Of a DNA stretch of 64,000 bases, positions 1,404 through 64,000 are shown one piece after another (the first letter of the stretch is position 1; every line of letters begins with the position of its first letter). Under the pieces are notes generated by a model. That model was not told the DNA's origin, did no database searches, and saw nothing but the letters and a program-made list of their open reading frames with translations. The DNA comes from Yamagishiella unicocca (Eukaryota > Chlorophyta > Chlorophyceae > Chlamydomonadales > Volvocaceae): positions 496,001-560,000 of the forward strand of contig BDSL01000018.1 in the NCBI GenBank assembly GCA_003116995.1. The letters run 5' to 3'. Both the position numbers and the translations under genes were made by a program.

Positions 1404-4400
1404 TCACGCCGCCGCCACATCCGGCGGCGGAGGCGAACCCCCAGGGGCAGTGGCACCCGGCTGCGCCTGCTGCAGCGCCTCCGAGCCGTTGGCCACGCTG
1501 GCGTTTGGCGTGCTCTTACGGAGGTGCACCTGCTCCATGGCCTCCCGGTGCGCCTCCTCAATGGGGTGCCAGTCGCCCTCGCCGCCCAGCTCCTTGGGCA
1601 ACAGCTGCACGGCACGAGGTCAGGTCAGGGAGGGGTTTCCGGAGGTCGTGAGATAGATGGGAGGGGTTTAGGAGCGAGGCCGGGGCATGGGGAACGGGGC
1701 TTGCGTGCTGGTTCGCCGAGCCGCTGCCAGGGGGCGACATCAAGAGCCCTGTGCTGCTGTTGCGGTTCCGGATGATCGTGACAGCCGGGCCTGGTGCTGC
1801 GCGGGAAGATCTTGCTGCGGGCCCCTTGATCCCAGCCCATGCCGCGCGCCCAGAACCAGCCTCTCCGCCACTGCCCCCGCGCCCACCTGCAAGTCAAAGA
1901 CCTTTCCGAACTCGTCATGCGCGGTCTTAGCGAACACGAAGTTGATCTTCGTCTTGGTGACCGGGTCAATCTGAGGTGGCGGTGGCACGAGGGAAGAGAG
2001 GGGAGGGGAGGGATCAGTCAGCAGCGCGGGAGGGGGATCAGATCGTCAGCAGCGCGGGAGGCAGGCAACGGCTGAGGCAGAACTAACAACAGAGTTCAGC
2101 ACGACGCCGGACATACACCTGGCCCAGGTAGCCCGTGTATGCAAAACCATAGCTGAACACGGCAGTCGCACAACGACGTACGGCAGCCACCACTCGATCC
2201 GCGCCCAACCCACCCCACCCACTGGGTGCCTGCAGCCGCCAGATCCCTGAGTGTATGTGCACCCTAATTCCAATACACTTGCCGCCCCCACTTACGAAGG
2301 GGCTCACCGCCCGCCACAGCGCGTAGAAGGCCATGGGCGCCTCGTACAGAAACAGCTGACCCAGGCGCTCCGGGTCTGTGGTGGGAGGTGGGAGGTGGGG
2401 TTGTGACTGCGTCTCTTCCCGAGGTTAGCGCCAGTATGCGGCGAGCCTGGAGGTGTGCCCCAGTCGCACCAACATTCTTAACCCAGTTGCCCCCGTTGAT
2501 GCTGCACGCACCCACGCACCCACAGTGGACTATATTCCCCAAGCGCAACGGCGCAATGGGCAAATGGGATGAGAGGTTGGGTGCGCCGACTGACCCATGG
2601 GACATCCCAACTGGGTGGAAAGCCGACCGCGCATGAACGACGACATACGACAAGGCCCGGCAGCGGCGCATGACTTACAGTGATTTTGTAGGAGCTCGAA
2701 CATGACTTGCAGCGCCGTCAGGTCCGCATTCTTCATGCTGAGATCTGGGGTGCGAGGGGCAGGCGGGGCAAGGGTGGGACGTGCTAAGTCCAGACGTCGT
2801 TGTTGCCGCGCGCCGCGCGGCGTGGGAGGGTGTGACAGCGCCCGTTCAGAGAAAGATCTTAAGTCGTGGCTGTCGGGCTGCAGCGGCAGCAATGCGTGCA
2901 GACGCGACAGACCAGCGGTGATGATGGCGGTGTCGGTGGTGAGCAGCTGCTCTACGGTGCCACCAGGCTGAAATGCAGCAGCAGGCGGGGAACAGTAGGT
3001 CGTGGGTCCCCCAAGCAGGGCGCGTGCCCCTAGTGGTGTCCGTTCCCGCCGCACTCACTCCGCAGGTCGAACAATCCAGTGAGCTTGCCATCCCACGTTT
3101 CATGTGAGTTCCTGGGGGGTTGGGTTAGCGGCGGGTTAGGGTTAGCGGCGGGTTAGGGTTATCGGAGAGGCGGTGGGAGGGTGAAGCTAACCAGGAGGCG
3201 ACCGGCAGTGACCAAGTGTCTGCCCCATGCCACTCCCTGCCCCTTCCGCCTCTGCCAACACGTTCGTCCCATCAGCTTTTGGCCCATCAAGCATACGCTG
3301 CGCCTCGCTTCCATACTCGCTGGTCGACGGTGCCAATAAGGTCCGCCTGTCGTTCGTCAGGGGCTCCTCCCTTCTTGGGGTCGGGAAAGGGGCGGCGACG
3401 ACGTCACCCGATAACAGGAAATATGTGTCGTCTCACCCGATGCGTACGGCAGTGTCGAGGGCGTATATGCAGAAGCCCACGGCGTCCTCCTTGCTGTCGA
3501 ACTTGCGGTGCCGCGCCCCCACGCCCAGCACGATGGGCCGACCCACCTTGTCCAGCCCCTGCAGAAACACCTGCGTGCGCGAGGGGAGGTATACTGGAGT
3601 GTGTCAGCTCAGAACGAGCAGGCGAGGGTACCATGTTTGCATACTTCAGAGCGAGTAAGCGGGAGAAGGACATGGCAAGGGCTGCGAACGCGCTTGGAAA
3701 GGGGCGCACGGTTTGTGAGGCAGCGGGAGCAGCGGCAGCGGCAGTGGCTGCAGTGTGTGTGCACGGAGGTTGCGCTTGCCTCCAGCCAGCGGGAATGGTC
3801 ATTCATCGTCTCGCACTCGCAGAGCACAACGATGGCGGCAGGCCCGGGTCCAGGTGGAGGTACCACCACCCACCACCTGCCTCCACCCTTGCCAGTGATG
3901 TTGCGGAACAGCACTGCGTGCAGGGCAAACCCCGGATCGAGCCCCGCCCGGTACTGATGCACATACGCGCTACGCGTTCATCCACACCGGCCAGGAGACC
4001 CATCCAGCCACAAGCACGCGCCAGCCCACCAGCCACCTGCTTCCGCGAACAGACCCCCCTTACACGGGTTTCCTCGGCCCCCCTCCCGTTCTCCAGCATG
4101 CATCTCAAAACGTCTGTTCTAAACGGGTTTTTTCTCGCATCCACGGGTCTTCCTCGGCCCCCCTCCCGTTCCTCTTTACCACATCACACCCAGCTCGCCC
4201 ACCTTCTCTTGCTTTAGATTAACCTGGACGCCATGGTGGTCCTCCTCCACCGGGCGCCCGGGGCCCCGCCGCCAGGTGATGTGCTTTTCAAGCATAACTG
4301 CAGCGGCCTGCAGGGGGCCGGGTGAATGGAGGAGGAGCGGCGACCGCTGTGGAGTAACGATTAGGCAGGCTTTGATGTTTCGGGGGCCCTCCCGTTGGGG

Positions 4401-5094
4401 GATCCGTCGGAGGCCGTAGCGGCAAAGGCGACGGTGGGAGGAAGTTTCCAGGGTTGAGCATTTAAGGGCACAGTGCAGGCTGGAGAGGACGGCGGGGAGA
4501 GGGACTCACGCACGGGAACGTCAGCAGCGCGGAGCAGCCCGGCGTGCAGCAGTACGCGCCGCGTTTAGAGCGTCAGCAAGTGCTTAGTAACTGCGTGACG
4601 GCAATGTGAGGACTATTGAGTTGCTGTTGACATGCTGTTTTAGGTCGTGCAGGAACGCACTTCAAAATGCAGCACCTCGAGACGGCAAACGCGGGGCGTG
4701 ACCCATGGGTGTGACCTCCGATGCAACTACCCGAAGTGGAAAGCCAATCGCATCAGCCAGCAGGAGGTGCAGGACACACGGCCTTATACTGTATTTAAGA
4801 ACCTTTCTGTAGCAAGAGTTGCTTACGAAGGCATCTTTGTGCACGAAAACCCAAACGGCATGCTGAGCCCGTCCGACCGCTCAACCGAGGTTACATTATC
4901 GCAACCCCTTTCATCTGACCCTGCCCACGCACCTTGATATCTCCTTTCCGTGCCACCAGCCATCGAGTCAGCAGCTTGTCTGTCAGGCCTCCTTCAAAGG
5001 CGCTCGTGAGTACTTCGTGCGCATCGTGGGGCAAAAGCTTCCGCAGTTCGTCTATATCATGTTGATTTGGATGATAAGTGGGATGCGGCGACAT
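1404..5094 (-). CDS. Sec14-like CRAL-TRIO domain protein
   Basis: Eight exons: 5094-4933, 4307-4224, 3570-3437, 3111-3059, 2744-2679, 2375-2296, 1970-1887 and 1604-1404. They join in frame to 287 residues. The N-terminal CRAL-TRIO-N helices (LTDKLLTRWLVARKGDI, then VMLEKHITWRR) precede the lipid-binding fold (LDKVGRPIVLGVGARHRKFD, TWDGKLTGLFDLRNLSMKNA, YPERLGQLFLYEAPMAFYAL, IDPVTKTKINFV, LLPKELGG near residue 222). These are the diagnostic Sec14 blocks in the right order. The family shuttles phosphatidylinositol, phosphatidylcholine or tocopherol-like ligands between membranes; the ligand here is unknown. No GOLD or nodulin domain follows and the C-terminus is Pro/Ala-rich, so this is a short, probably cytosolic type. 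The ATG at 5094 is the first Met of exon 1; an upstream exon cannot be excluded. The gene is divergent from the M16 homologue. Confidence 0.9.
3122..3166. repeat. Short GGGTTA/GGCGGGTTA tandem repeat
   Basis: Repeated GGGTTAGCGGC and GGGTTAGGGTTA units in intron 3 of the CRAL-TRIO gene. They resemble degenerate telomeric DNA but are too short to be a true telomere tract. Confidence 0.6.
4071..4171 (-). mobile_element. Intronic short interspersed element, family A, with 21-bp direct repeats
   Basis: Lies in intron 2 of the CRAL-TRIO gene. A 59-bp core (4092-4150, sense on the minus strand) carries GAGGAAGACCCGTGGATG-like and GATGCATGCTGGAG-like blocks that recur in other introns of this window. 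It lies between two exact 21-bp copies at 4071-4091 and 4151-4171, which look like a target-site duplication. No coding capacity. Confidence 0.7.
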
Positions 5095-5433
5095 CTCGTG
5101 CAAACAGATCGGCAAGGCAACGAGAGAGTGACGTTGTCAAATAACTCGGAGATACCGGTAGCAGAGGCACAGGCAAAACTTAAACAACGGATTGTTACAA
5201 CCAATTGGCATTTAAATATTGATTAGATTGATGCGCACCGCTCACCACTTGCTCGCTCTGGCAAGTGGCAACGCTCCAATGCATGAGACATTTCCGTACA
5301 GAAACCGTACATACGTTTCCTACAACTCGCTCCTTTTGTGCAATCGTGGGCATGCTATGTATGACATTGCAGGTGCTGTAATTGCATTTGCTTGTTGACC
5401 GTGTACCATTGCTCCATTGGTTGCACATCACCA
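5095..5433. promoter_or_regulatory. Divergent promoter region, CRAL-TRIO / M16 homologue
   Basis: The two start codons face away from each other across about 340 bp, so both promoters and both 5' UTRs must fall here or overlap the first exons. The stretch is less GC-rich than the flanking exons. No clear TATA box could be assigned. Confidence 0.45.
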
Positions 5434-10172: not shown

Positions 10173-10228
10173 CCGTAGGCGGGTGGGAGGGTTGTATGCA
10201 AACAGGAAGCGTGCAGTTTGGCTGTGAG

Positions 10229-10233
10229 TGTAA
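10229..10233 (+). terminator. TGTAA polyadenylation-type signal after the M16 homologue
   Basis: TGTAA lies 57 bp past the TAG stop. It is the usual volvocine polyadenylation motif. Another TGTAA near 10497 is an alternative. Confidence 0.45.
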
Positions 10234-12105
10234 CCAGGGGTGGTCGTGGTCGAGTGCGATCTAGGCGGCAGGAGATGGTAGGAGGGTTTGCGGAAGGTTT
10301 AGCTAGAACACGCTGGGGCAGGATGATGTTTATCCGAATGGCGAACTGGACGGAAAATTGGATGGTCATTGTTGCAAGCGCAGTGTGAGATCGGCACTGA
10401 GAGGTGTCTTGGCTGGGTACTGAAAGCTTTGGAATGGAACCTGGAACGCGAGAATCTCGAGGAGCACCCGCAAGGATCGCGATGCACGTTTTGTCTTGTA
10501 AGTGTGGCAAAGGGAGTGCGTGGCGCCGACGCGAAGCGCAAACGGTGTGAGGTAGACCCTACGCTGCTGAACACGGCTCGACTTCCTCTCACGCGCTTCA
10601 CGCTAGTGTCGGTTCATGCAGGTCCTTCTGAAGACGTTTTTACACATTGAGGATGACTGCATTAGGGGTGGCCCATGCCGCGCAAGCAGGATGCCGTTGG
10701 TAGGCGAAGAGTCGGTCATGGCGACTACGGGTATACGGAGCGTAGCGGAGAGCCTCAACCTACAGTGCTCTCAAGCTGTGTTGTAGATAGAGATTACCAC
10801 TATATTACAGGACCGTTGAGGCCGGCTGCAAGGGCTCGGCTTCCGACGAACCCGGCGGGCGACGCTACGGACTGACAGCTCTCCTTGGATCTTCTGCGGT
10901 TACTCTAGGGATCAACCTGCCCTGGACACTCGTCATTGAACTGTAATAGCTTAGTAAACTCGCGTGGGCTTTTCGGCCTGCTTCGGAAAGATGGCTTGCT
11001 AGACGGATGTGGCCGGCTCTCACCGCAAGTGCAGTGACAAGTTTGGCAACAGGAGTGTTGCTGAGAAATAGGCGCAATAGCGGCCGATCTACAAGAGGCA
11101 AAGCGGACGAGGAGACTGGCTTGCGCCAGGTGCGTCACGCTCTCTTGAAGGGACCAGTAAGGTGTGTGTGACCATTGCTGTGATCGCTGTGCAACTGCAT
11201 TCGGTTTATATGTTACGGGGAATCTGATGCCGAGTTGCTTAGAGTTTTAGCTATTTGCTCGACGCGTTACCTCGAGGAGACGCGGAGAGCCCCACCAATT
11301 TGCAGTACGCGTCATCGATATTTGCCACTGTGGTAGGCCATTAGCGTGACATCACGTGCTAGCCTGACTTCGAGGCCTCGGACAGCCCTTTGCGCGCGAA
11401 GATGATTCAATACTTGCCGCACGCGCCTTCGCTAGAGCCGTAACGCAGTCCCTGCAGTGTCACAAAAAGATATAAACATATAATACTCGCCAAGGCACGC
11501 GGCGAGTGCTTGGCCCTTGCCTTGACCCTGCATCCAACCACCAGGAGCGGAGTTTGCCGGAGCCATTGGGAGCGCGCAGCAACTTAACTGGCGCCCTTGA
11601 CAGGGCGAACTCAGCCCACGAAACCTCAGGCGGCAACGGCGCAAAGGCCCCAAGCGGCTCCCCATCAGCGCCACGGACGCCCTCGGGCGCCCCTCTTAGC
11701 CTGAACAGCGGCCCCAGCATACGGAGCCCGCCACAAGGCGGCGAGGCCGACCCAGAAGAGGTCGCGGCAACGCAGGACCGTAGCGCGCAGCCCCCGACCT
11801 CGGACAGCAGCAGCGGCCCCCGGGTCTCCCTCCAGGCGCGCCTCGAGGCCGCTTCGGCCGATCCTGCGGCGGAGCCGCCTCATAGCCAGCAGCAGCGCCA
11901 GCAGCAGCAGCAGCTTCCGGCAGATACCAGCGCCGCGGCAGCAGCTGCAGCGGAGTGCGGCGCGGAGGCAGGACCCACGGCTGCTCACGCCGCGGAGGCG
12001 CCAGCCCTAACGCGCGGCAGCCCCAGCCCCTCCTACCGCGGGCGGGTGCGGGAGCAGTGCGAACAAATCACCAAGCGGGTGGACATCAACCCCACTACCA
12101 CCACC
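10234..12105. other. Intergenic region and 5' leader of the large coiled-coil gene
   Basis: No gene recognised from 10.2 to 11.4 kb. A TATA-like stretch (GATATAAACATATAATA, 11469-11485) could be a promoter element. From there to 12106 there is no ATG in any frame, which fits a long leader. The frame upstream of 12106 is nevertheless open for about 600 bp and Ser/Ala/Gln-rich, so an unseen upstream exon that adds N-terminal sequence remains possible. Confidence 0.5.
11469..11485 (+). promoter_or_regulatory. TATA-like element upstream of the coiled-coil gene
   Basis: AT-rich TATAAACATATAA in an otherwise GC-rich setting, about 620 bp before the proposed ATG. The assignment rests on composition and position only. 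Confidence 0.3.
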
Positions 12106-15100
12106 ATGTCCAAGGCCCCAGCCGCCGACGTGGCGGCGGCGGCGGCATATGAGGGCAGCGGCGGCGGCGGCGGCGTCCCAGCGGCGGAGCTTCAGGCCCA
12201 TCAGGCCAGGCTGGCGGAGGTGGAGGCGCGCCTGGCGGAGACGCAGGCGGCCAATGGGCGACTCGCCGCCGCACTGGAGGCGGCGGAGGCGGAGAACGCG
12301 GCGATGAATGCGAAGCTGGCTGCGGCGGCGGCGGCGCCGCCATCGGCGGAGCCGTCACCGCGTAGTGCCGTGTTGCCCGCCACTAGCCTGCAGTCCGACC
12401 CGGCTCTGCTGGGCGTGCAGGACAAGATCATAAAGCTGACTCGCGAGCAGAGCACGGAGCGGCAGCAGGTGCTGACGAGCCTCAAGGAGGAGCAGCGGCG
12501 TCTGGCGGCCATCCGGAAGGAGATCACGGAGACGGAGCGGACGAACGCGGAGCTGAAGAAGAGCCTGGCGCGCACGGACATCAAAAAGCTGCGGGAGCAG
12601 AAGGACGCGCTGGGGGCCAAGGTGGGGGGGCATCAAACCCATCGACGCGACAACACCGTTCATGGACAGGATAGTTGGCGCGTCGTGGGTGGGGGCAAGG
12701 GCCGGAGGACGGGTCGGGGGCATGTGCTGACGGACTTGGCCGCACCTCGGCGCTGGTTGTGGAACTAACTCCCCGCCTCACCCGCCCCCTGCCGCCCCCC
12801 TTCCAGGCCGCCGAGGCGGAGCACCTGGCGGCGCAGGTGGCCTCACTGGCCGCCAACGCCAACCGGCTGGCGGCGCTGCAGGCGGACCGGGCCCGGCTGG
12901 AGCCGCTGTCGGGTGAGGTGGCGGCGCTGGAGGAGCAGCTCAAGGAGCTGAGGCAGCTGGAGGCGACACGCAACTCGCTGCAGGTGCGAGAGGGGGCGGG
13001 GGCCTGCGTGGGGCGGCAGGGGGGTTTCGAGGAAGACCCGTTGGGCAGGGGGGGGGCGGCGTGGGAGGGCAAGAGAGGCCGGGGTTTTAAGCCGCGCGGG
13101 CTTGTCGGGTGGCAGTTGCGGTTCGGGCGCTGGAGGGAAAGCTCCTCCACGGCTCGATTACCCCAACCCCCGCGCTGGCCCCAGTGTACGCCCCTCACCC
13201 CTTGTGGAGGTATTACTAACGCACCCAACTACACCCAACTGCCCGACGCAGGTGGAGGTGGCCGGTCTGCAGCCCGCCGCCGTCATGACGGAGCGCCTGC
13301 GCAAGCAGGTGGCGGCGCTGCGTGCTGACGCCGCCGCCTCCGAGGCCCTTCAGGAGCAGGTCTCCGCCCTCAGCCCCGTGGCGGAGCAGCTGCCGGGGCT
13401 CAAGGCGCTTCACGCCAAGCTGCAGGCGAGCAGCGCGGAGGTCAGGCAGCTGGAGAAGCAGCTGGAGCAGCGGGACAAGATGGAAGCACTGAGGCAGCAG
13501 CTGCAGGGGCAGCTGGAGGAGCTGCAGGGCAAGGTGGCGGACATTGAGGAGCTCAAGCGGCGAGTGGAGGGGGCGCAGCTGGCGGCGGGGGAGGTGACGC
13601 AGCTGGAGGCGAGGTTCGCGGCGCTGCAGTCGGTGGCGGCGCGGCTGCCGGTGCTGCGGGGGCAGCACGACAAGCTGGCGGCGCAGTGTGCGGAGGTGGC
13701 CGACTTGGAGCTGCAGCTGGCGGAGCTCAAGCAGCAGGTGCGAGGGGGTGGTGCGAGGAAGACCCGTGGATGTGAGGAAAACCATTTAGAACAGACGTTT
13801 CGGGATGCATGCTGGAGGACTTGGTTGAGGAAACGAAAGACGGAGGTCGTATGTCGGGGGTGCAGGCGTTACGGAAAAGAACCGGTTACTCGTCATGGGA
13901 GGTGTAGCAGGTGCGGGGGGTGGGGGAAGGGAGAGTGGGGAGGGGAGGGGAGGGGGTTGGGGAGGAAACCCGTGCACACGACCATAGGAGAAAGGGGGTA
14001 AGATCCAGGAGTTCAGGGAGGGGGAAGGTGCTGGCGGAAGGGTACGACCGAAGGGACACGCGAAGGGGTTGCGTCCGGAGGTGGAGGGCTTGCTGCGATC
14101 GCTTGGGTTACGAAGTGGGTAGTGGCCAGTTCTAGGCGCCGAACACGACCCATGGGGCGGCGGGGACCTGACCTCTGCAGGGGGGGCCTGCCGAAGGCAC
14201 CTCCTCCGTTATCCGCCCATACCTGCCTCCGTGTGGACGTCAGTACTCCCCCTAGCCGTCTAGCGCCCCCGCGCCTACGTGCACCCCCCCCATCCCGCCA
14301 CTCCGCCCCCCCCCCCACACACACACCCTGCTCGCCGACCATGCGCCAACTATCCTGTCCTTTTCGCGTCAACGGTTTTTACGCCACCCCCCCAGTAGCC
14401 TGCGCGCGCGTCCCGGTGTCCGAAGGCTATGCACCCACTACATTTCCCCAGTCGCGTTACCGGTTCCTTTATTGCACCCCCCCCTCTGCCCGCAGGTCGC
14501 CTTCCGCAACGCGCTGCAGCAGCAGATCAACATCCTGGCGCCCAAGGCCGCGGGGACGGAGTCCCTCCGCGCGGCTCTGCGGGAGATCGAGGCCCAGGTG
14601 GCCTCCAGCGACGACCTGGCCCTGCAGCTGGCGCAGATGCGAGCAGTGGTTCAGGAGCGACGGCGCGACGGCGCCAGTCAGTTCGTGGAGGCGGTGTCCA
14701 TCCTGGGGCTGGTGCCGGCGGTGGAGCAGCCGCAGCACCACACAGGCGAGGAGCGCTCCTCCGCCGGCGGAGCCGGCGGCGAGTTGCGGCGCGAGGAGAG
14801 CTTCAGCAACGGCGGCGCGGCGTCTTCTGCTGGCGGAGCGGCGCAGGAGCGGCTGGCGAGTATGGTGCCCGCGGGTGGACTGGCGTTCCCGGCGCCGCAG
14901 CCGGTTGCCCGGTGCCCCTCGGCCGCGGTCACTGCGGGCGGCGCGCGGGATAACAGCCAGTTCAGTGAGGCGGTCAGCAGCCTGGGCTTCGAGCTGCAGC
15001 GCAGCACAGCGGGTCAGTCGGCGGCCGTGGCGCTGCAGCCGCTGCCGCCGCCGCAGCAGCCCTCGCCGACCAGCGCCCACGTGACCCCGCGGAACTCGAT

Positions 15101-18100
15101 CTCGCTGGGGCCGGTGGTGGGGGGGGGGGCTCCGATTCGCGGCAGCCCGCCGGGTACGTTGCTGTCGGTGGAGCAGCTGCAGCAGCAGCAGCAACACGAG
15201 CGGGACTATCTGGACCGGCTGGCGGAGCTGGAGTCTCAGATGCGGGGCGCGGCGGCGGAGGCGTACAGTCGGGAGGCGGAGACGCTGCGCGCGCGCGCGG
15301 CGGCGCTGGTGCTGCCGCCGCCGGCGGAGCTGGAGGAGCTGCGGGCGGAGGTGGCGGCGCTGGAGAGTGCGGCCAACGAGGCGCTGCAGCTTCAGGGGCA
15401 GGTGGCGGAGATGCGGCTGCTGGCGGGGCAGCGGCAGGAGCTGCAGCTGGACATGGAGAAGAGCCTCAAGGTGGGGCGGGGTGGGGTGGGGTGCTGGCTG
15501 GGGAAAAGGTCGGGGGGGGGTGAGCGAGACCCGTGGGTTGGCACTGACGTTCGGGGGGCTGGCATAAAGACCGGTTACACGACATAGGTAGGATGTCTGG
15601 CGCATTCGGGGCGGGGGGGTACCACCCATGGAGTGTGTTTTTTTTGTGAGTGGGTGGGCAGCGTAGCCCTGCGTGCCTGGGTGGGTGGTGGGGCGAGGGT
15701 GTATGTGTTTTCGGAGCCTGGGCTCCCTGGGTTTCGATCTACAGGCGGGGTCTGGCTGGCGTACGGGGTACGTTTGGGACTGGTGACACTAGCAGCGGCG
15801 GTGTCGTACTCGAAAGACAGCTGGCTGGGCCGCCTTGACCCGCGGCTGCACCCGCCGCGGCTGTCCCAATCCAGAAACCTTCCCTCCCCCCCTCCCTCCG
15901 TCCCCTCTCCCCACCGCGCTGCAGTCCCAACTGGCCCTGCTTGAGGATCAGGCCCGGGAGGCGGAGGTTCTGGAGCGGGAGGTGCAGCAGAAGAGCGACG
16001 TGGTGGCCCGCAAGCACGAGCTGGAGATGCAGCTCACGGAGCTGGAGGCGACAGCGGCGGAGGTGAGGGGAGGGGGGTGGGGGAAGGGCGAAAGGGTTGG
16101 GGGGTGTATAAGGAAAAAGGGTTTGGGAGGGGGCCAGGGGAGGGGTAATGCAATACATGTACATTAAGCAGGATGTGGCTGGATGGATGGCGGGTGTGTG
16201 GGTGTGCTGTTGGGGATTTAGGGATTTAGAGACTTGGCGCGGAGGTGGAGCGGAGCCGAATCGGAGGGCCACGGCCAGGCGGCGACGGGCGCGAGGGTGC
16301 CCGGGCCTTGTGGCGCTCCCGGGGTGGTTCCGGAGCGCAGACGGATGTCGTACCTAGCCTCACATCCCACCTCACCCATTACCCATCCGCACTCCCCCCC
16401 CCCGCGGCCCCCTCTCCACACCGCGCCACCCCCCCCCCCCACACACACGCACCCCTCCCCCCTCCCCGCCAGATCTACCTGCTTGACCGGCTGGTGGCGG
16501 GCAGGAAGGAATCCATCTCCCGCCGGCCGGAGCTGGAGGCGGAGATGCAGCGAGTGCAGGTGCGGCAGCTGCCCGGAGGGTCCGAGGAAGACCCGTGGAT
16601 GCCCGAAAAAACCGATTAGAACTGCCCGGAGGGGGAGCGGACGGGGCGGGCGGGTCTTCTTCAGGGCTGGGAGCTAGCGCGACAGCGGCAGCGGCAGGCG
16701 AGGGCACTACCTCCCTCCGTCAGCCACAGCTGCAGCCGGGGCTGCAGCTGTGCGTGTATGGCGCTGCACCCCTCCCCCCCTGCACCCCTCCCAGGTCCAA
16801 TCCATCTCCGCATCACAGATCTCTATCCGCTGTCTTTCTGCATACCCCCGCTACCCGCCACCCCTGGAGCGAACACCGCCTGCTGCCCCTGCTCCCTCTG
16901 CCACCACCTCCAACCCCGATGCCTCTTGATCCCCTTCTGCTCCCCCCGCCACCACCGCCCCCCCCGCCACTCCGGTGCAGTCCGAGGCGGAATCTGCCGA
17001 GGAGCTGCGGCAGCGGGTGGAGCTCATGCAGCAGGCGGCGGCGGAGCGGCCCCACCTGGAGCTGCGGGTGAACGAGCTGCTGCCGGTGCAGGAGGAGGTG
17101 GAGGCGCTCAAGGCGCAGGTCAGGACCTGGGGGGGTCGGGGGGGAGACCCGGGACCTGGGGGAGTCAGGGGGAAGACCCGGGGATCGAAATTAGAGCCGG
17201 CGGGGGAGTCCTGAAGGGGGACCGCACCTGGTGGAGGGGCGGCTCCACGCACCAGCATCACCCCAAGGGGCCGCACGGGGAGGCGGCAACAGACCAGCAG
17301 GTCCGAACCTCTGCCAGCTTACGGTGCTCTGAAGCCGTACGACAAATCCGCGCCGTACATCAAAATTTCGGCTCGCGTGTAGCTTCATACCGTGTGACCT
17401 GGCAGGGGCTCTTGTGCGGGCTGGGGAGCGGAGGGTTTGGCGCCAGGGGCCGAGGAGGGGGGGTACACAAAAGAACCGGTGACTCGGGGGGTTTACATCG
17501 AATGATTGCCGACTGGGTGTGTGTGAAAACCGTTTTACGCAACGGGACAGGATAGTTGGCGCATGGTCGTCGGACACCAATTTGTGGGCGCATGCTGGAG
17601 CACTGGAACTGACTACCGGCAAACCTGTGGAGGCGCCGGTGGGGGTAACATGCGGGAGCCTCGGACTCAGCGCGCGAGTACGGCTCTTGACTCGGGACTC
17701 CCTCGTGTCTGCCTCTTGCGGTGGCTCGCAGGTTTCTGCGCTGGAGTCGGTGGCTTCGGAGCGGCTGCCTCTGGAGGCCCGGCTGCGGGAGCTGCAGTCG
17801 CAGGTGGCGGAGATGGCGGCGCTGGAGGCGCAGCTGGTGCAGGCGAGGGCGCTGGTGGGTGCCGGGGGGCGGGGGGCGGGGGCTGGCGGCGGTGCAGCTT
17901 TGGGCAGGGACGGCTTCGCTTGCAGGGCCCAAGCGGATGGGGGGGCAGGGCGGAGGGGTATACTTCAGGAGTGGCGCATCGGCGTCAGCAAGGCCGCGTC
18001 GGACTTGGCACTTTGATGACAAGTGGTGGGGGGTGGTTTCGCCTCCTTAAGCGCGCACTGCATCGCGCTGCGTGCGCCTTAGGGTCCATGTCTCTGGCTC

Positions 18101-20643
18101 TGCTAGCGCTGGCCTGCCCGCATTGCCGACCAGCACACGGCAAAGGACCGCGGACTCACACGGCCCCCTCCTCCCCCCGGCCGCTGGTGCAGGTGGCCCA
18201 GCATTCGGACCTGGCTACCGAGCTGGGCCGGATTGCGGGGCCCGCCGCCGAGGCCGCGGCCCTCAAGGCGCAGCTGGAGGAGCAGAGGGCGCTGACGGAG
18301 AGCGTCCCGCAGCTGGAGGCGGAGATAGAGGCGGTGGAGGTGGAGGTGGCGCGGGTGAGGGGGTTTCGAGGAAGACCCGTGGGTGGGGGGGGGAAGCCGC
18401 CGGAGGGGGGGAGGTTTCAATAAAATAACCGGGAGGGGAGGGGGAGGGGTGCGGTGGGCAGAGGGACGGGGGAACGGCAACGGAGCGAGGCAATCATATT
18501 CGTGTCGTACCCTGGTGGCGTTCCCGCCGAGCGACATGGCCAGGCCATGTTGCCTCGTACCAGCTCCATCTAGCTTCGCGCCTGTGCTTGTCGGCGTATC
18601 GTCCCCCCTCCCGGTTTTATGCCACCCCTGGTGCCGTGATTTTTCTCTGGACCACCACCTTCATCGCCTTCATGGTTTGTCGGCCGTGACTTCGCGGATT
18701 CTCTTATAACCCCCCGTCCCTCCCTCATGGACCTCTCTCCCTGGACCGCCGTCCCTCCCTCCCTGGACTCCTCCCTCCCTCCCCCAGGTGCGCACGCTCG
18801 AGTTCATCGTCAACCAGCTCCGCGCGGAGATCAGCAAGGGCTCCGTGCTGCAGGACGAGCTGCGCGGCCTGAACGACACGGCGGAGCGCCTGCAGCACGC
18901 GGACGAGGTGCAGCTGCGGGCGGAGCGGGACGAGGCGCGGGTGCGGGTGATGCAGCTGGAGGGGGTGCTGGCGGAGCTGGAGGCGCAGCTGCAGAGCCTG
19001 GAGCAGCGGGCGCCAGCTGCCGCGGCGGTGGTGGCGGAGGTGCCTAGCGAGGCGGCTCTGGCGGAGGCGGCGGAGGCGGACGCTGAGGGGCAGATGGCGC
19101 CGATGCAGAGCCAGATGGCGCGGCAGCAGCAGCTGATGGACCAGCGGCAGTTCCTGCAGCAGGAGCTGAAGGACCTGAAGGTGTGGACCGGGGACCGGGG
19201 AAGGAAGCGGCGGTGCTGCCGCCCCCCCCTGTCGGCCATCACTACCACCCACTACCCACCAAACAGCCGAACGCCGCCACGCGAGTCGCCACCTCTCCCA
19301 CGCGCCTGCGCCATGTTATCGTACATATTAACCATACATTAGGAAACGTGAATTTGACAGATTTTCTTCTTCGTGTGCATAAAACGACTATGAATGAACC
19401 TCGCTTGCCCTCCCGGTCACTGCGACACGCCTACGTCTGCAACACACTAGGCTGGCACAGCACCACAACCAACGTAACAACAACACCAGCACAACCACCG
19501 TAACACCACCACAACCACCACAACAACCACCACCTCCCCTCGCAGGCCGTGGAGGCGGACGTGGTTCGCCTGCAGGCGGCCATACGCGCCCTGGCGCCGC
19601 TGGCGGAGCAGCGCCTGGCCCTGCAGGCCGAGCTGGAGGAGATGCATCGCCAGGCCGGAGCGGCAGCCACATCGCTGGCGGGCCCTATGCACGCGTCGCC
19701 AGCGCAGCCCGCGCGGGCGTTGACCGCGTCCCCACCCCCGGTGCAGAGGTCCCCCAGGTACCCGTACACATCCAGCGGCGGCGGCGGCGAGGCCTGTGAG
19801 GGGCCGCTGGGTCGCGGCGCGCTGCCGATGCTCGGCCAAGACGACGGCGGCGGCGGCGGCGCGGGCGCACGTTTGGAGCCCGAGGCGCCGCTCCCGTCGG
19901 ACCCGACGGCGGCGGCGACGGCGACAGCGTACGAGGCCGACGCCATCGCCGCCGTGGCGCAGCAGCGGAGCATGCTGACGGAGGAGGTGGAGGCGCTGCG
20001 GGTGCAGGTGGCGGTGGTGGCAGCCCTGCGGGAGGAGCGGGAGGCGCTGCGGGTGGTGGAGGAGGAGGTGGTGGCACTGTCGCACGAGATCCCGCACCTG
20101 GCGCCCTACGTGGAGCTGCTGCCGGCGCTGCGCGCCGAGCACACGCGCCTCACGGAGGCGGTGGCGGAGGCGGAGCGGCTGCGGAGCGGCGTGGAGACCA
20201 TGTCGTTGCAGCTGGATGTGATGAGGGCGCTGAGGGAGGCGGCGTCGCCGGTGGCGGACCGCGGAGCGTCGAGCGTGGGGTTGGGGACTGAGCAGGACCA
20301 GCACCACCTGTCGGCGCCGGCTGGCGCCGAGGAAGCGGACTCGGGCACGGGCGAAGATGACTGCAGCCCCGGGGGGGTGACGCCCGGGGGGCGGAGCGGC
20401 GAGCTGAGCGGGGCTGAGGCGTGCAGCCCCCGGCCTGTGGGCGAGGTGGAGTCGTCGCTGACGGCCGTGTTTGCGAAGCTCAAGTCCTTGGAGGTCGACA
20501 AGCACGAGCTGGAGGAGGAGAACGGAGAGCTGCGGTCCACCATTGATGACCTCAGGCACCAGCTGGAGAACAGCGCGGAGGCGATGCAGAAGCTGCGCGG
20601 GGTGGCGGAGGCGCTCAACATGCTGCGACGGACCAACATGTAG
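12106..20643 (+). CDS. Large coiled-coil protein (1430 residues), function unknown
   Basis: Eleven exons: 12106-12621, 12807-12983, 13252-13737, 14496-15470, 15925-16062, 16473-16559, 16981-17118, 17732-17854, 18193-18354, 18788-19180 and 19546-20643. Nearly the whole protein is Ala/Glu/Leu/Gln/Arg heptad sequence (for example LEEQLKELRQLEATRNSLQ, LEKQLEQRDKMEALRQQLQG), broken by low-complexity Ala/Gly/Pro linkers. It ends in a cleaner coiled coil, VDKHELEEENGELRSTIDDL. No catalytic or membrane segment is seen. All ten introns are phase 0, mostly after a Gln or Lys codon (CAG or AAG before GT). The ATG at 12106 has the strong context ACCACCATG and is the first ATG for over 600 bp. Centrosomal, flagellar, Golgi-tether or myosin-like roles are all possible and I cannot choose between them. 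Several introns carry interspersed elements. Confidence 0.8.
13751..13820 (+). mobile_element. Intronic short interspersed element, family A
   Basis: Starts 13 bp after the exon 3 donor of the coiled-coil gene. It contains GAGGAAGACCCGTGGATG, TTTAGAACAGACGTTT and GATGCATGCTGGAG in the same order as the copies at 4.1, 30.6, 61.4 and 63.5 kb. Confidence 0.65.
14338..14486 (-). mobile_element. Two interspersed element copies (families B and C) filling an intron end
   Basis: 14338-14395 matches family B (GCGCCAACTATCCTGTCC core, also near 17.55 and 58.62 kb). 14424-14486 matches family C (TTTCCCCAGTCGCGTTACCG core, also near 31.56 and 57.35 kb). The second copy runs to within 10 bp of the acceptor at 14495. 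Confidence 0.6.
16569..16633 (+). mobile_element. Short family A element with 12-bp direct repeats
   Basis: A 41-bp core (16581-16621) containing GAGGAAGACCCGTGGATG lies between exact copies of CTGCCCGGAGGG at 16569-16580 and 16622-16633. It begins 9 bp after the exon 6 donor of the coiled-coil gene. Confidence 0.7.
17520..17606 (+). mobile_element. Intronic interspersed element, family B
   Basis: Carries AAAACCGTTTTACGC, GACAGGATAGTTGGCGCATG and GCATGCTGGAGCACT. The reverse complement of the same sequence lies at 58584-58676. It is in intron 7 of the coiled-coil gene. Confidence 0.6.
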
Positions 20644-29195: not shown

Positions 29196-36646
<7,451 letters not shown>

Positions 36647-57100: not shown

Positions 57101-60100
57101 CTGGTCCGCTCGGGGAACATGCACACCAGGGTGCGGCCCAGGCCGAAGTAGCGCACGTGGTCGAAGTGGAGGGAGCGACCGAACACGTCCAGGCCGTCTG
57201 GGCGTGGGTGGGTGCGTGGGGGAGGGAGCGGGGCGGGACGGGGCGCGGCGGGGCGGAGGCCCGTGGGTGAGAGGAGCGGGGGGGTTGAAAGAGAATCCGC
57301 GAAGGGGGGGGGGTTTGAAGGAGAATCCGCGAGCGGGGGTTACAATAAAAGAACCGGTAACGCGACTGGGGAAACGTAGTGGGTGCGAGCGGGGGGAAGG
57401 GGCATGAAAACCGTTGACGCGAAAAGGACAGGAGCGGGGGGGCGGCAGAAGAGCAAATCCCAGTGGTCCGACTTGATGCGAGGAAGGAAGGGGTGTGGGG
57501 GCTAGGGAAGGTGGGTAGTGAGGTGCGCGCGGAGTGAGTGTCGAGTAGAAATAGAAACTGAAAAGGCTAGAAAAAGTCCAATACCGGCGAGCAGTGCATG
57601 TCAGGCGGGGTGTTGGGAGGCGGGGGAACGACACCCCGTTATACGCCCATCGGTTGGGCGGGGGGGTGGGGGTGACGCACTGGGCTGAGGCCGCCCCCGC
57701 AAGCAAGCAAGCGCGGACGCGGGCGCAAGCACCCTCCACACAAGGCCCCAGCGGCGCCCCCCCTTCGCTGCGCGCCAGCAGCAGCAGCTGCTGCCCCGTG
57801 TTCCGCACCCGCCGTGAAGGACAGCTCCAAGAAGCGCCCCATGCTGATGTAGCAGGAGTCCTGAGACAGTGGCACGCGGCGGCACCAGCCGGCGCCGTCG
57901 CGGCCCCGACCGATGGGCCGAGTCCAGTGCCAGATCTGCCACCGCGGGAACGTCCGTCGCCGGCGCAGGGGGGGGCATAACAACCGTTCAACCGTTTACG
58001 CGACAGGGACAGGATAGAGTTGGCGCATGGTCGGCGGCGCAGGGGGTTTAGGGGGGGAGTTGTCAGCGAGAGCACAACGAAACACACAAGCACCGACACA
58101 CGAGGAAAGTGGGCGGTGGTGGGGAGGGATGCAGCGAGGCGGCGGGCTTGTACTAGGGCTTCTACTGGTGCAGGGGCCGCACCTGGTTCTTCTCCTCCCC
58201 AGGCAGGGCCTGGACGGGTGGCAGTGTGGAGTAGAAGATGGTCAGCTTGCGGCCGCCGAAGAAGAAGACGCTTTCGTGGGCGGTGAAGGGGTCGGGGCAG
58301 CCGGCCTGCAGGGGGGGAGGGCGAGGAGGGAGACGGCGGGGGGAGGGGGGTGGCATAATGACCCGGGGGGGTGGCGGATGACGCCGGCGGATGAAAGCTA
58401 GAGAGGCAAATGGTTGGCGGATCATTGTGGTGCGGCGGGGAGTGTGCTGAGCAGCGAAGCGGCCGGCGACCCATTGCGGGCGGCGCAGGGGGAAGAGCTG
58501 CCGTACGGGTCTACACACCGGGCCACAGCCCATCAGCGAGGTCGTCCCCTCTTCTTCTGCGCTTCCCCCCCCCCGCGGGCCCCAGTGCTCCAGCATACGC
58601 CCACAAAATAGGCGTCCGCCGACCATGCGCCAACTATCCTGTCTCTGTCGCGTAAACGGGGTTTATGCCACCCCTCCGGGCCCCCCCCTCCGGGGCCCCC
58701 CCTCCGGGCCCCTCCCCTCGCTCGGCGGCTCACCCCCGGGCATGTCCAGCCCAGCTGCGTGCACATCTTGATGTAGCGGATGAGCGGCACGTCCGAGGAG
58801 CGGTGGTAGAAGTCGATCTGTTTCACCTGGAAGGGGTCGCACAGGTTGCGGTCGCGACTGCGCCTGCGGGGGGGCACGGCGGGGGGAGGGGGGTTGGGAA
58901 GGGGGTTGGGGAGGGGGTTGGGGAGGGGGTTGGAGAGGCAGAAGACGGGGAAAGGGGGAGGCCGTAACCCGCAAGCGCCGGGGAGAGCGCTGGGGAGATG
59001 GGGGTGGAGCTCAAGGGCAACAGGCTAAGAGGCAGTGAGCAGGTAGGACGCAGGAGGGTGGAGGGTGTGTGTGGAGTGGGGGGGAGGTAACCCGGATCGA
59101 GCCATCACGTGTTTGAGCATTACGTCGCCCACCCAGTGCTGCACCCCGCGCAAACCCACCGACGACAACCATTCCCCCGCCATCCCGCCAGCAGCGTGCC
59201 CCGCGGTACGACCGCCTGTCGTATACGTCCTGCCGCACATGCGACCCGCACATCCCCCCCAGTCGCCTCAAGCCCCCCATCGCGCCCGCCCCCCAAACTC
59301 CCCGCCCCGCCCACCGCACCTGAACATGCAGGTCACGAAGATACGCTGGTGGTTGTAAATGCGCTGCCCCTGCAACACCATCACCGCGCTCTGCTGCGGT
59401 AGCGCCTGCTGCTGCTGCTGAGTCGCCGCCGCCACCGTCTGTTGCTTCTCCACGGCTTCCTCCTCCACAGCGGCCGCCCCAGCACCGGCGCTCTCCTCCA
59501 CCGGCCCTGCCCCCGCCGCGGGCACAGCCGCAGACGCACCCGCCCCGCCGGCATCCTCCGGAACCACAACCACCTCGGCCTGTCCCTCAACGACCGGCGC
59601 CGCCGCTGCTGCTGCGGCATCCGCAGCTGGCGGCTCATCGCCCTGGCCCGGGGCCGCACCCTCGTCGCCGCCCAGCCCCTGGCCGGCCTCCGCTCCCACC
59701 AACGGCGCGTTCGCCAGCGCGAAGGGCGAGTTCATCGTCATGGCGGAGGGCGCATGCGCCCCGGGCGGGGGCGACTGCGGCTCCGCCGCCGCAGTAGCCG
59801 CGAGCTGCTGGGCGTCTTCGGCGCCCCCAGCCGCCTCCGGCGCCGGTCGAACCTCCGCCGCTGGCGCCGCTGGCGCCGCTGGCGCCGCTGGCGCCGCTGG
59901 CGCCGCTGGCGCGGCGGCGGCGCCCTCTGCGTCCGACGCGTCCTCCGCGAGCGCGAAGGTCATCTCCTGCTCCAGCTCCGGCGCACCCACCGCGGTACCA
60001 CTCACAGTCGCGGCCGCCGTGGCCGCTGGATCACGGAGCTCCGAAGCTGTTGCTGCTGCAGATGCTGCTGCAGATGCTGCTGCAGATGCTGCTGCAGATG

Positions 60101-63100
60101 CTGCTGCAGATGCTGCTGCAGATGCTGCTGCAGATGCTGCTGCAGATGCTGCTGCAGATGCTGCTGCAGATGCTGCTGCAGATGCAGATGCTGGTGGCGA
60201 TGGTGGCGCGGCAGCTGCCGGTCCTAGCTCCCCCGGGCCGCCGGCGGCAACAGCGGCAGCCCCAGCCTCGCCGGGCGGCCCGCCCTCACCACCTGACCTT
60301 GCCAGCGGAGCTGGCTGCTGCTGCGAGTCAGGCAGGGCCAGGGGCTGCGTCTGGTGCGGGAATGTGAAGCCCTGCTGCTGCCACTCGGCGATGAGGCTGT
60401 CGTCCCAGGCGTTGCAGTGCGGGCTGATGGACAGCAGGATGCCGGGCGCGCCGGAGGCGCTGGCGGCGAGCACGGAGGCGCGCACGGCCCGCTCGGCGTG
60501 CTGCCGGAAGAAGGAGAGAGAGAGGGAGAGGGAGGGGGCCGGGGGGGAGGGCGGCAGGGGACCGGAGGCCATGGAGGTGAGGTTGAGGGAGGGGGCGGTC
60601 TGGAGGCCGCTGCCCGGGCTCCCCCCCACAGAGGCCGCGTGCGCTGCGGCAAGGAGCGGGAAGAGGAGGGGGGGTGGCGGAGGGGTGGAGGGAGGGGGGT
60701 TATGAAAAAATCTGCGAATCCACGGAGGGGTGGAGGGGGGCCGAGTGGGGCGGGAGCCACGTGATAGTACGACGGGGGCCGTGCGGCAGGTGGAAAACTT
60801 GGGTGTAGGTTAGGAGAGGGTGTGCAAAAGTAAACCACGCCGTTCCTCGAACGGGCCCACCGCCAGCTGGGCAGGGACAAGGCCGGGGGGGGGAGGGGTA
60901 TATGAAGCCCGGGTGGGGTTCGAGGGAGACCGGGTGGGGAGGGTAGCGAGAAGGACCGGCTACACGGCACCCCGGGGGGTTTGGTAAGAGAATCCGCGAA
61001 TCCACCCCGGAATCCGCGAATCCACCCCGGAATCCGCGAATCCACCCCGGAATCCGCGAATCCACCCCGGAATCCGCGAATCCACCCCGGGGGAGGGCCG
61101 GCGCGTGCAGCGGCGTACCTTCCTCTCCCGCCGCCACCACCGCCGCAGTGAGCAGGTCCGTGAGGAAGGACGACTCCAGCCGCTGGTTCCACGCCGTCAG
61201 CACCGCGAAGCCCACCACCGGCTTGAGCCTCTTCAGCAGCTCCACGCCGGCGCCCTTGAGCAGCACAGTGGCGGTGGTGGGGCGGCAGCCCTCGAAGTAC
61301 ATGAGGGTCACCTGGGGGGGGGCGGGGGGGCCGGCGGGGGAGGGGGCGGGGCCCTGCGGGGGGAGGTTCGAGGGAAACCCGTGGATGTCCGAAAAAACGT
61401 TTATAAACAGTAGTTTTGAGATGCATGCTGGAGAACTGGGTTGGGGATACGAAAGCCGAAGGTCGTAATATGACCTTTGGCAGCTAAGCTATAGCGGCTA
61501 CGGCGAGACGAAGAGAAGCGAGGACCCCACGCGACGCACGGAAAGTTTTCGCAGAATCGACTTTTGGGCGCTAGCAGGAAAACTGTGGGAGTTGGTGCGC
61601 TATGGGAGAGCGGCCATCGTGGTCCGGTCCCAGTTCCAGTCCTAGTCGGAGTCCCCGTCCCGACCCGCCCGAATACCGACCAAATGCGTGAGGAAGCTGG
61701 TCGTTACCAGAGAAGGTCCGCGGTCGTCCAGGAGAGGAGGCCGAAGCCGCGCCGCGCCGCTATGGGGGACGCGAAAGCCCAGACGCAGGTCCCGACGCCC
61801 GCAGACAAGAACGCAAGGACTAGCAAAAAACGACTAGAACAGAGGCCCAACCCAGCGGCGGAACTCACCTGGCCAGGGCCCAGAGCGGGTTGGGAAAGCG
61901 GTCGACGCAAAGCATGCGGGCAGGGGGCAGCAGGGGGTTGAGAGGAGGGGGGCAGGGGGAGAGGGAAACCAGCGTGAAGCGACGGCTCGGCACAGAAGCA
62001 GAGCTGCAAGGGCGCTATGTCGGACAGACAGAGAAGAGGCAGCAGCAGCAGCAGCACCCCGAGGGGAGCCTCACCGTCCTGCCCAGCGCGGGATGAGACC
62101 CCGGAGCAGCTGCCGCCGCGCCGCGCGCGTCCCCCGCCGCCACCGCCACCGCCGCGCCGCCCGGCCTGTCGCCGCCCGCCGTCGCCGACGAGAAGCTGCC
62201 CCCCGCCGTCGCCGTCGCCACCACGCCTGCCGAGCGCACCACCGTGGACGCGACCCCGCTGCCCGCCGACACGCAGGCCACCGCCGCCGCCGCGTTGGGT
62301 CCCGAGCCCAGAGCCTTCATCATCATGGCGGCCGACAGCGACGTGTAGTTTCCCTGCTGGCTCTCAGGCATCGAACGAGGCGCCACAGACGGAGGCGGCG
62401 CGGGCGGCTCGGGCGGCGGCGCCGGCTGGGAGGAGCTGTCGCCACCACCACCGCCGCCCTGCGTCGCCTCTCCGCCAGCAGCAGCAGCCGCGGAAGGCTG
62501 GGGCTCGTCCTCAGGCGTCGGCGCCTGGCTGGCGCTGGCGCCGGTTTCGGCTGCGCCGGCTCCGCCGGCGTCCGCCGGCGCTGGGGCTGCCGTCGCCGGC
62601 GGCGCTGGTGCCGCCGCCGCCGCCGCCGGCGCCGCCCCTGCCGTCTCTATGGTCTCCGCCTCCACTCGGAACACCTTGCAGTCCCCCAGGTAGAGGTGCG
62701 CGGTGGCCGGGGAGAGGTGCTCCACGGTGGGGGTCACCTTGACGCCCATGCAGCGCGCAAGGCGCTCCAGGACCTTGGCCTTGATCTTCTGGGCCACGCT
62801 GATGTTGCGGGACTGCGCGGCCGGGGGGAGAAGGGCGGGAGGGCGGAGGAGGATACAGACAGGAACGGGTTACTCGACATGGGCAGGGCGGGGGGAAGGG
62901 GGAATCAGGGGGGTTAGGGGCGGGGGAGGAGCTAACGCATGCGACGGGGGCAAAAGGTGAGCGGTGGAGGGAGGGGCGGTTGTGTGGTTGCAGAGAAAAC
63001 AACACGGATCGTCGGGTAGGAGGCCAGGAGGCCGAGAGGGGCTGACAGGTTCTGCAGCGTCAGTCAGCGAGGATGGCAGCGGGCTCCTGCTCTCGCGGTG

Positions 63101-64000
63101 CCGTCCAATACCACCATCGGGGCTTCCACGACCTCACACCTCCCTTGCCCGCGTAATCCCCCTGCCCGGCACCGTCCCCTGATTTATTCTCCTCGGTGTA
63201 CTATGTCGTATCAACCAGGTTTAGGTTTCCTCGGCCCCACCCTCGCCAAAACACACACCACTGTCCCCCCTGCCCTCCACTAAAACCCTAAAACCCCAAC
63301 CCTAAAACCCTAAAGCCCCACCAGCAGATCCTCCTGCGCCATCCTGGCCACACTGCCCTCCACCAGCACCACGTCGGGCTTCAACACGGACAGCCGCGCG
63401 ACCGCGTTAGCCAGGTACTGCCGGTCCTGTGGGCAGGAAGGGGCGGAGGGGGGGGCAGGCGGAGTGGAGGGCAGGGACGGTGGGTCGGGGGTGGCGGGGT
63501 GCGGTAACGCAGCCAGGTGAAGCCTCGGCGTGTGGGTTCGAGGAAGACCCGTGGATGCCCGAAAAACCCGTTTAAAACAGACGTTTTGAGATGCATGCTG
63601 GGCGTGTGGGGGGGGGGGGCTAGGAATGCGGCCCCGTATCGCCTGCTTCCCTCCTCGTGATGCCCAACACCCTCTCCCCTACCCCCTCTCCCTTGCCCTC
63701 TCCCCTGCCCTCTCCCCTCTTTCCGCCCCAAAGTGTGGACCACCGGGTCTCCTATCACACCCGGGCCCCCGCCAGGCGCTCACGTGGTCCATCAGGTCGA
63801 AGCTGGAGAGCTTGTTGGTCTCCCGCTGGTACTCCAGCGACCCCGCAAGCAGCAGCACCTGGGGGCGGGAAGGGGGGGGCATGAGAGGAAACCAGTAAGT
63901 CGCCATTGCATTGGAAAACCGGATGTGTGCGGGGTAACCAGGGCCAGCTGATCCTGCTGAAACCCAGCAGGAGGTGAGGCAGGGGCCCCTGCTGGGCAGC
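51142..64000 (-). CDS. FAB1: FAB1/PIKfyve-type phosphatidylinositol-3-phosphate 5-kinase, 5' end beyond the window
   Basis: Partial; sixteen exons seen: 63858-63784, 63426-63322, 62812-62075, 61311-61119 (end uncertain), 60500-59320, 58863-58734, 58305-58183, 57935-57809, 57197-56454, 55896-55549, 55361-54768, 54636-53123, 52693-52472, 52222-52088, 51876-51673 and 51333-51142. Together they give about 2200 residues. The GroEL/TCP1-like domain has [38 protein letters not shown] and LMYFEGC. The Cys-rich region has [31 protein letters not shown] and [16 protein letters not shown]. The kinase has [30 protein letters not shown] (catalytic Lys), [41 protein letters not shown] and the specificity loop [14 protein letters not shown]. 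It makes PtdIns(3,5)P2 on endosome/vacuole membranes. A FYVE domain, if present, would lie off the right edge. Ala-rich inserts are unusually large, including (SAAA)11. The exon 4-5 junction does not close in phase with the best donor. Confidence 0.93.
51928..52010 (+). mobile_element. Two short intronic elements (C-like and D)
   Basis: 51928-51958 contains AAAAGAAGCGGTAACGTGAC. 51977-52010 contains AAAAACCGGTTACACGACAT followed by GGGTAGGAT. Near-identical D sequence lies at 15565-15595. Both copies are antisense within a FAB1 intron. Confidence 0.5.
52375..52426. repeat. Interstitial telomere-like repeat
   Basis: CCCTAAACCCTT, CCCTAAACCCTTAAACCCC and CTAAACC in a FAB1 intron: degenerate CCCTAAA units. 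Confidence 0.6.
56026..56190. repeat. 12-bp minisatellite, about 14 copies
   Basis: Unit GGTGCTGTGCCC (a few copies with GCGCCC) in a FAB1 intron. Open frames (PGTA and HSTG repeats) through it are artefacts of the repeat. Confidence 0.9.
57340..57435 (+). mobile_element. Adjacent interspersed elements, families C and B
   Basis: 57340-57385 carries AATAAAAGAACCGGTAACGC (the reverse of the 14.45-kb copy). 57404-57435 carries GCATGAAAACCGTTGACGCG and AAAAGGACAGGA, a truncated B copy. Both are in the FAB1 intron between 57198 and 57808. Confidence 0.55.
57971..58035 (+). mobile_element. Interspersed element, family B
   Basis: ACCGTTTACGCGACAGGGAC, AGGATAGAGTTGGCGCATGG. It is in the next FAB1 intron, antisense to the gene. 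Confidence 0.55.
58576..58684 (-). mobile_element. Full-length family B element
   Basis: Its reverse complement matches 17520-17606 along its length, from GTTTACGCGACAGAGACAGG to GCGTATGCTGGAGCACT. The flanks carry CGGGCCCC on both sides (58576-58583 and 58677-58684), a possible but low-complexity target duplication. Confidence 0.6.
59866..59916 (-). repeat. 9-bp coding repeat, (APA)-type
   Basis: About five GCTGGCGCC units within FAB1 exon 5, encoding Pro-Ala-Ala repeats on the minus strand. Confidence 0.8.
60050..60187 (-). repeat. 12-bp coding minisatellite, (SAAA)11
   Basis: Eleven GCTGCTGCAGAT units in FAB1 exon 5, in frame on the minus strand as Ser-Ala-Ala-Ala. The 12-bp length keeps the frame whatever the copy number. 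Confidence 0.9.
60991..61090. repeat. 20-bp tandem repeat, five copies
   Basis: AATCCGCGAATCCACCCCGG, five exact copies in a FAB1 intron. Single related copies (AATCTGCGAATCCACGG, CCCGCGAATCCACGG) occur at 60708 and 32940, so the unit is itself a dispersed motif. Confidence 0.9.
61367..61436 (+). mobile_element. Intronic element, family A
   Basis: AAACCCGTGGATGTCCGAAA then TTTTGAGATGCATGCTGGAG. Antisense in a FAB1 intron, beginning about 55 bp from the acceptor of exon 4. Confidence 0.6.
63280..63315. repeat. Interstitial telomere-like repeat (CCCTAAAA)
   Basis: CTAAAACCCTAAAACCCC and CCCTAAAACCCTAAAG. The unit CCCTAAAA is the Chlamydomonas-type telomere repeat. It ends 6 bp before FAB1 exon 2, inside the intron. 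Confidence 0.65.
63527..63610 (+). mobile_element. Family A element with 10-bp direct repeats
   Basis: A 64-bp core (63537-63600) running from TTCGAGGAAGACCCGTGGAT to GAGATGCATGCTG lies between GGCGTGTGGG at 63527-63536 and at 63601-63610. It is the cleanest consensus copy in the window. Confidence 0.75.

What the first reader, a model, noticed from the sequence alone, without database searches (positions are those of the whole stretch)
4071..63610. Introner-like short elements resident in introns, with target-site-type duplications
At least eight loci share a roughly 40-75 bp unit (GAGGAAGACCCGTGGATG ... CAGACGTTT ... GATGCATGCTGGAG): 4.1, 13.75, 16.58, 18.37 (fragment), 30.6, 31.83, 61.4 and 63.5 kb. 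All lie in introns, in both orientations, often within tens of bases of a splice site. Four have exact flanking direct repeats of 21, 12, 17 and 10 bp. The copies I can see are non-coding. This combination is what introner-type transposable elements produce. I know of introners in Micromonas and several other eukaryotes; whether this family has been described I cannot tell.
Basis: partly seen in the sequence, partly recalled or inferred. Interest (0 to 1): 0.85.

Follow-up and report, generated by a model that had tools for sequence, protein, structure and literature searches.

The report
Truncated Penelope-like retroelement tails in introns
The short repeats that looked like intron-making elements are the clipped ends of a telomerase-related jumping gene that copies itself into runs of G, which in this alga are densest near the ends of introns, so they sit in existing introns and do not appear to make new ones.

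Summary
The repeats are real: eight of eight reported copies were found, four with exact flanking duplications. The leading 18-mer occurs 6,784 times in the 133-Mb genome against 6 for a reversed control. Copies keep one end; the other is cut at varying points. Longer copies run, on the opposite strand, into a reverse-transcriptase (RT) ORF. That RT is of the Penelope-like element (PLE) type: a relative's model matches telomerase RTs best, and in relatives a GIY-YIG-like domain and a CxC motif precede it. So these are 5'-truncated PLE copies, probably Chlamys type, median 48 bp in a 17-copy sample. They sit at G-runs. G-runs cluster after splice donors and C-runs before acceptors, which explains the closeness to splice sites. 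None of 42 complete predicted introns, holding 55 copies, is made of the element alone; at least 150 bp remains. Two of 27 duplications straddle a splice donor: donor duplication, not shown intron gain.

The parts
4088..4155 (-). copy 1: 5'-truncated PLE tail, about 68 bp, fixed end at 4155; 22-bp flanking repeat copies at 4150-4171 and 4070-4091; a micro-stub GAGGAAACCCGTG follows
   Evidence: intron of a minus-strand CRAL-TRIO gene, roughly 48 bp from the donor (by eye)
   Evidence: predicted intron 12984-13251
13751..13851 (+). copy 2: about 97 bp tail, 17 bp from the donor, sense; no duplication of 8 bp or more
16569..16633 (+). copy 3: about 39 bp tail with 12-bp target duplication CTGCCCGGAGGG on both sides; intron 16560-16980
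18364..18382 (+). copy 4: about 15 bp micro-copy, 13 bp from the donor, sense
30546..30652 (-). copy 5: about 69 bp tail with 17-bp target duplication (30546-30562 and 30636-30652); the second duplicate spans the exon-intron junction at 30640/30641
   Evidence: DEAD-box helicase gene
31820..31871 (+). copy 6: about 48 bp tail, antisense, 29 bp from the acceptor; intron 31795-32026
61366..61631 (+). copy 7: about 262 bp tail of the GAGGGAAACCCG subfamily seen on three RT-bearing elements; antisense, 58 bp from the predicted acceptor (exon edge uncertain by up to about 14 codons)
63527..63610 (+). copy 8: about 62 bp tail with 10-bp target duplication GGCGTGTGGG; antisense; intron 63427-63783
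   Evidence: flanking exons align without a gap to a Volvox reticuliferus protein

Best explanation
The repeats are severely 5'-truncated insertions of a Penelope-like retroelement (PLE), probably of the N-terminal-endonuclease, Chlamys type. Shown: one fixed end, which is the 3' end of an RT-bearing element, and one variable end; copy counts that fall from the fixed end inwards; target duplications of variable length; a G-run at the fixed junction; linkage to a telomerase-like RT. Inferred: the element's endonuclease nicks G/C-run DNA, the RNA 3' end is reverse-transcribed from the nick, synthesis usually stops within tens of bases, and repair leaves duplications of about 8-22 bp. G-runs follow donors and C-runs precede acceptors, so surviving insertions lie inside existing introns: gene-sense near donors, antisense near acceptors. 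No exonic copy was seen in the sample, presumably through selection.
Against: No Pfam family is listed for this genome's own RT frame. In relatives, GIY-YIG passes its cut-off only in P0026 and P0027, and RVT_1 stays below its cut-off in all ten scanned. P0001's N-terminal segment has no Pfam match, and profile comparison of the N-terminal domains gave 7.6% probability although E=0.0046. Half the sampled copies (41 of 82) show no exact duplication of 8 bp; part may be decay. The 39:15 sense excess (p=0.0015) is not explained by G-run numbers (96 sense, 140 antisense in the window). 30 of the 82 copies were picked as best matches to a 101-base query, and some of the long repeats lie in tandem micro-copies.
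Confidence: 0.9

Rival explanations
1. Introners: elements whose insertion creates the intron, with splice sites in the element or in the duplicated target.
For: Copies in introns, target duplications, both orientations; two duplications include a donor. In L003 the duplicated AGGTGGGT could in principle supply both a donor and an acceptor around a 45-nt stretch.
Against: None of 42 complete introns (55 copies) is made of the element alone; at least 150 bp remains. After subtracting copies, bearing introns (42, median 445.5 bp) are no shorter than the 119 without (median 323 bp). Position relative to splice sites follows the G-run distribution.
Confidence: 0.05
2. A SINE or LINE family, 5'-truncated, using a LINE machinery.
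For: 5' truncation, variable target duplications and short non-coding copies are shared with LINEs and SINEs.
Against: The linked RT is PLE/telomerase-like; two of the five linked loci were reached from the tail itself. No tRNA was found in the window and no Rfam match in the window or in 6 element loci.
Confidence: 0.04
3. A MITE-type DNA transposon.
For: Short, non-coding, abundant.
Against: One end varies from copy to copy and duplications vary in length; copies grade into an RT-bearing element. Terminal inverted repeats were not searched for separately.
Confidence: 0.01

Closest known systems
Chlamys-group Penelope-like elements
   Same: PLE RT of telomerase type, with an N-terminal endonuclease-like domain and a CxC motif before the RT in relatives; C. 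reinhardtii homologues at 47-52%. Many copies, few intact: Ectocarpus has 4,782 PLE/Chlamys copies, 27 intact (PMC12477816, passages).
   Different: Here the copies in the length-unselected sample are mostly tens of bases long and sit at G-runs. Recalled, not read: Chlamys-type elements were described elsewhere as biased to microsatellites.
Canonical Penelope elements (rotifers, Drosophila)
   Same: Partial tandems, 5' truncation, pseudo-LTRs and target duplications such as 8 and 10 bp (PMC3846280, passages).
   Different: Endonuclease C-terminal in canonical Penelope (recalled); N-terminal here by position. The rotifer families are of very low copy number (abstract passage).
Introners (Gozashti et al. 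2022)
   Same: Short, abundant, intronic, some families flanked by target duplications.
   Different: Introners create the intron; some earlier families have 3-9 bp duplications and/or terminal inverted repeats, others lack them, and splice sites come from the element, the duplication or the neighbouring exon (PMC9860276, passages). Element-made introns were not seen here.

Membership tests
Introner | the insertion itself is the intron (boundaries at or beside the splice sites) | tested here: not met
   0 of 42 complete predicted introns (55 copies); smallest remainder 150 bp
Introner | intron absent at the orthologous site where the element is absent | not testable with these tools
   the genome tool states that no relatives are held
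Introner | target-site duplication (some families) | tested here: met
   41 of 82 copies at 8 bp or more against 7.8 expected; shared with many transposons, so not diagnostic
Penelope-like element | RT related to telomerase RT | tested here: met
   P0001 model: top 14 Foldseek and top 16 VIA rows are telomerases; P0001 is 69% identical to this genome's RT over the 428-aa query
Penelope-like element | tandem / pseudo-LTR arrangement | tested here: met
   identical tandem of at least 2,064 bp at C68; same-strand tail pairs 2.0-2.1 kb apart on C3, C12, C13, C23, C29, C39 among the 100 listed places
Penelope-like element | 5' truncation and target duplications of variable length | tested here: met
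Chlamys / N-terminal endonuclease PLE | GIY-YIG domain N-terminal to the RT | tested here: inconclusive
   order supported: N-terminal region upstream of RT at C110. Signature GV.YA..Y.G.T..R...H aligned in 3 relatives; Pfam GIY-YIG hits 1 of 3 segments and P0026, P0027, not P0001; profile comparison weak
Chlamys / N-terminal endonuclease PLE | CxC motif between endonuclease and RT (definition recalled) | tested here: met
   seen by eye in the ten relatives of alignment A1 that reach this region; not read in this genome's own copy
LINE or SINE | LINE-type RT linked to the tail | tested here: not met
   5 of 5 linked RT loci examined are PLE-type; three of the five were found with the PLE RT, and no whole-genome survey of LINE ends was made
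MITE | two fixed ends and constant target duplication | tested here: not met
   one end variable, duplications of varying length; inverted repeats not searched

The most novel reading that the evidence does not exclude
PLE insertion at G-rich donors acts as a splice-donor duplication and intron-lengthening process: by copying the exon end plus GT into the target duplication it preserves one working donor, moves intron ends, and now and then (duplicated AG|GT as in L003) may seed a new intron, so an RNA-based retroelement could be an occasional source of introns.
Probability: 0.12. Interest if true: 0.75.

Novelty: new member of a known kind. Interest (0 to 1): 0.45.

Why it matters
Thousands of short scraps of a telomerase-related retroelement can look like introners: they share a fixed sequence, sit in introns near splice sites and often carry target duplications. 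Their placement tracks G-runs at intron edges, so screens for similar introns in GC-rich algae need this control. The two duplications that straddle a splice donor give a concrete, testable route by which a retroelement could lengthen introns without harming the exon.

Tried and rejected
Introner, SINE/LINE and MITE readings were considered and set aside (see rivals). Rfam and tRNA scans of the window, and Rfam on six element loci, gave nothing. A general RVT_1 search returned 150 matches; 30 of those loci were fetched and none held a copy of this tail at up to 3 mismatches. In L081 a minus-strand ORF at 3171-5000 looked like a LINE C-terminus by eye, but that tail copy ends at about 791 with a target duplication, so the ORF is outside it. 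A distant RT paralogue (45% identity, C302) was checked for the known tails in 2.3 kb downstream and had none, so the other short families (F2, F3, F4) remain unassigned. A profile search of PDB sequences gave no RT hit; only fold comparison showed telomerase. The VIA-align rows covered model residues 363-1070, so the N-terminal domain was barely tested there. The paper recalled as defining the Chlamys group is not held; searches did not list it, and two works that use the name were seen in passages. A search for introner with volvocine returned 0 papers. I do not claim that this family is undescribed.

Three predicted proteins or parts of them matched Pfam domains, and one gene was aligned to Volvox homologues. 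At the junction flanking copy 7 (aa 314) the homologue has 14 extra residues, so that exon edge is uncertain.

Full report
Observation. The eight reported loci are all in the window. Read in one orientation, each begins after a G-rich stretch with a form of GAGGAAGACCCGTGGATG and then runs for a different length. The bases just before it are usually TTC, but not in every copy. The 18-mer with up to two mismatches occurs 6,784 times in the 133.4-Mb genome, against 6 for the reversed control. A pattern that includes the G-run and TTC, with one mismatch, gives 6,138 against 0.

Anatomy. Thirty-eight fetched loci (8 first-listed places and 30 best matches) showed the left end fixed and the right end variable. 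Counts fall along the element: 6,784 at positions 1-18, 2,709 at about 51-70 (control 2) and 546 at about 190-211 (control 0). Differences between subfamilies contribute to this fall, so the figures are rough. In 17 copies not chosen for length (9 in the window, including one doubtful, and 8 from the start of contig C1) the recognisable part has a median of 48 bp, range 15 to 262. In a sample of 82 copies, 41 have an exact flanking repeat of 8 bp or more, against 7.8 when right flanks are permuted among copies; for 10 bp or more it is 28 against 1.8. Some of the longest repeats lie in tandem micro-copies (L013, L028, L042) and are not independent. Of the 82, 38 are focal copies, 30 of them selected as best matches to a 101-base query.

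What it belongs to. Long copies continue for about 2.7 kb from the fixed end and, on the opposite strand, reach an ORF conserved between two loci; the substitutions between them are uneven by codon position (29, 10 and 14). The RT segment has 79 match pieces genome-wide. In 5 of 5 close RT loci examined the same tail lies downstream of the RT. Two of these were reached by extending tail copies and three by searching with the RT. The last three carry the GAGGGAAACCCG subfamily seen in the window copy at 61.37 kb. So the fixed end is the 3' end of the retroelement, and the short repeats are 5'-truncated copies. A more distant RT (45% identity) had none of the known tails in the 2.3 kb read.

PLE-type structure. 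At C68 a segment of at least 2,064 bp (the fetched stretch ends there) is repeated in tandem with 100% identity downstream of an RT. Pairs of same-strand tails 2.0-2.1 kb apart recur among the 100 listed places. Partial tandems are described for Penelope. Rfam found no ribozyme in six element loci.

Target. In 75 copies (the 82 less seven copies of the L013 array), G makes up 75-93% at positions -5 to -9 before GAGG, against 33% G in the window.

Gene context. My gene model was extended to the fetched loci. Of 82 copies, 65 fall in introns, 17 in unassigned sequence and 0 in exons; the bases are 44%, 37% and 19% respectively. The 4.1-kb copy, among the 17, lies by eye in an intron of a CRAL-TRIO gene. 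In complete introns, 36 of 41 sense copies are nearer the donor and 13 of 14 antisense copies nearer the acceptor. Runs of five or more, with copies masked, show the same polarity in the window: 79 of 96 sense G-runs are nearer the donor and 118 of 140 C-runs nearer the acceptor; over all loci 265 of 359 and 284 of 352. Runs are about twice as dense in introns (10.8 per kb) as in exons or unassigned sequence (5.2 each, all loci). G-run placement therefore predicts the closeness to splice sites. It does not predict the 39:15 sense excess among position-collapsed copies (p=0.0015), which may reflect selection near acceptors.

Introner test. Fifty-five copies lie in 42 complete predicted introns. 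After removing all copies the smallest remainder is 150 bp (an intron with two copies, 59% element); for single-copy introns it is 180 bp. The 42 introns have a median of 445.5 bp after subtraction; 119 introns without a copy have a median of 323 bp. Of 27 intronic duplications of 8 bp or more, 25 touch no splice boundary. In two, L003 and the window copy at 30.6 kb, the duplication spans the donor. At 30.6 kb it copies the last 12 exon bases plus GTGAG, leaving the upstream donor intact. This fits insertion at the edge of an existing intron. Orthologous introns in other volvocines could not be compared.

Verdict. A new family of a known kind: a PLE, probably Chlamys type, in a volvocine alga (the best protein matches of one window gene are Volvox reticuliferus, V. 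africanus and V. carteri), unusual for the shortness and number of its remnants and for its G-run placement. Not an introner on present evidence.

Noticed in passing
window 14451-14478 (-), 31565-31592 (-), 57339-57366 (+): A second short family (F2, TTACAATAAAAGAACCGGTAACGCGACTGG) with the same habit, a G-run then a fixed end; 1,123 matches genome-wide, control 0. Its autonomous partner was not found.
   Followed up: partly
window 17526-17551 (+): A third short family (F3, AAAACCGTTTTACGCAACGGGACAGG), 725 matches genome-wide, control 0.
   Followed up: partly
window 15563 and 51977 (+): A fourth tail-like unit (F4, CATAAAGACCGGTTACACGA) after G-rich stretches, also in L005 and L043.
   Followed up: no
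L013, about 2637-2861 (-): An array of seven micro-copies of the tail, 15-16 bp each, after G-runs.
   Followed up: no
contigs C12, C13, C23, C39 and others of genome G000: Many places match only about residues 1-93 of P0001 in a frame of 115 aa, some lying between two same-strand tail copies; they look like a non-autonomous, internally deleted PLE.
   Followed up: partly
window 6336-6705, 55987-56223, 60046-60237: Minisatellites of 27-bp, 12-bp and 12-bp periods.
   Followed up: no
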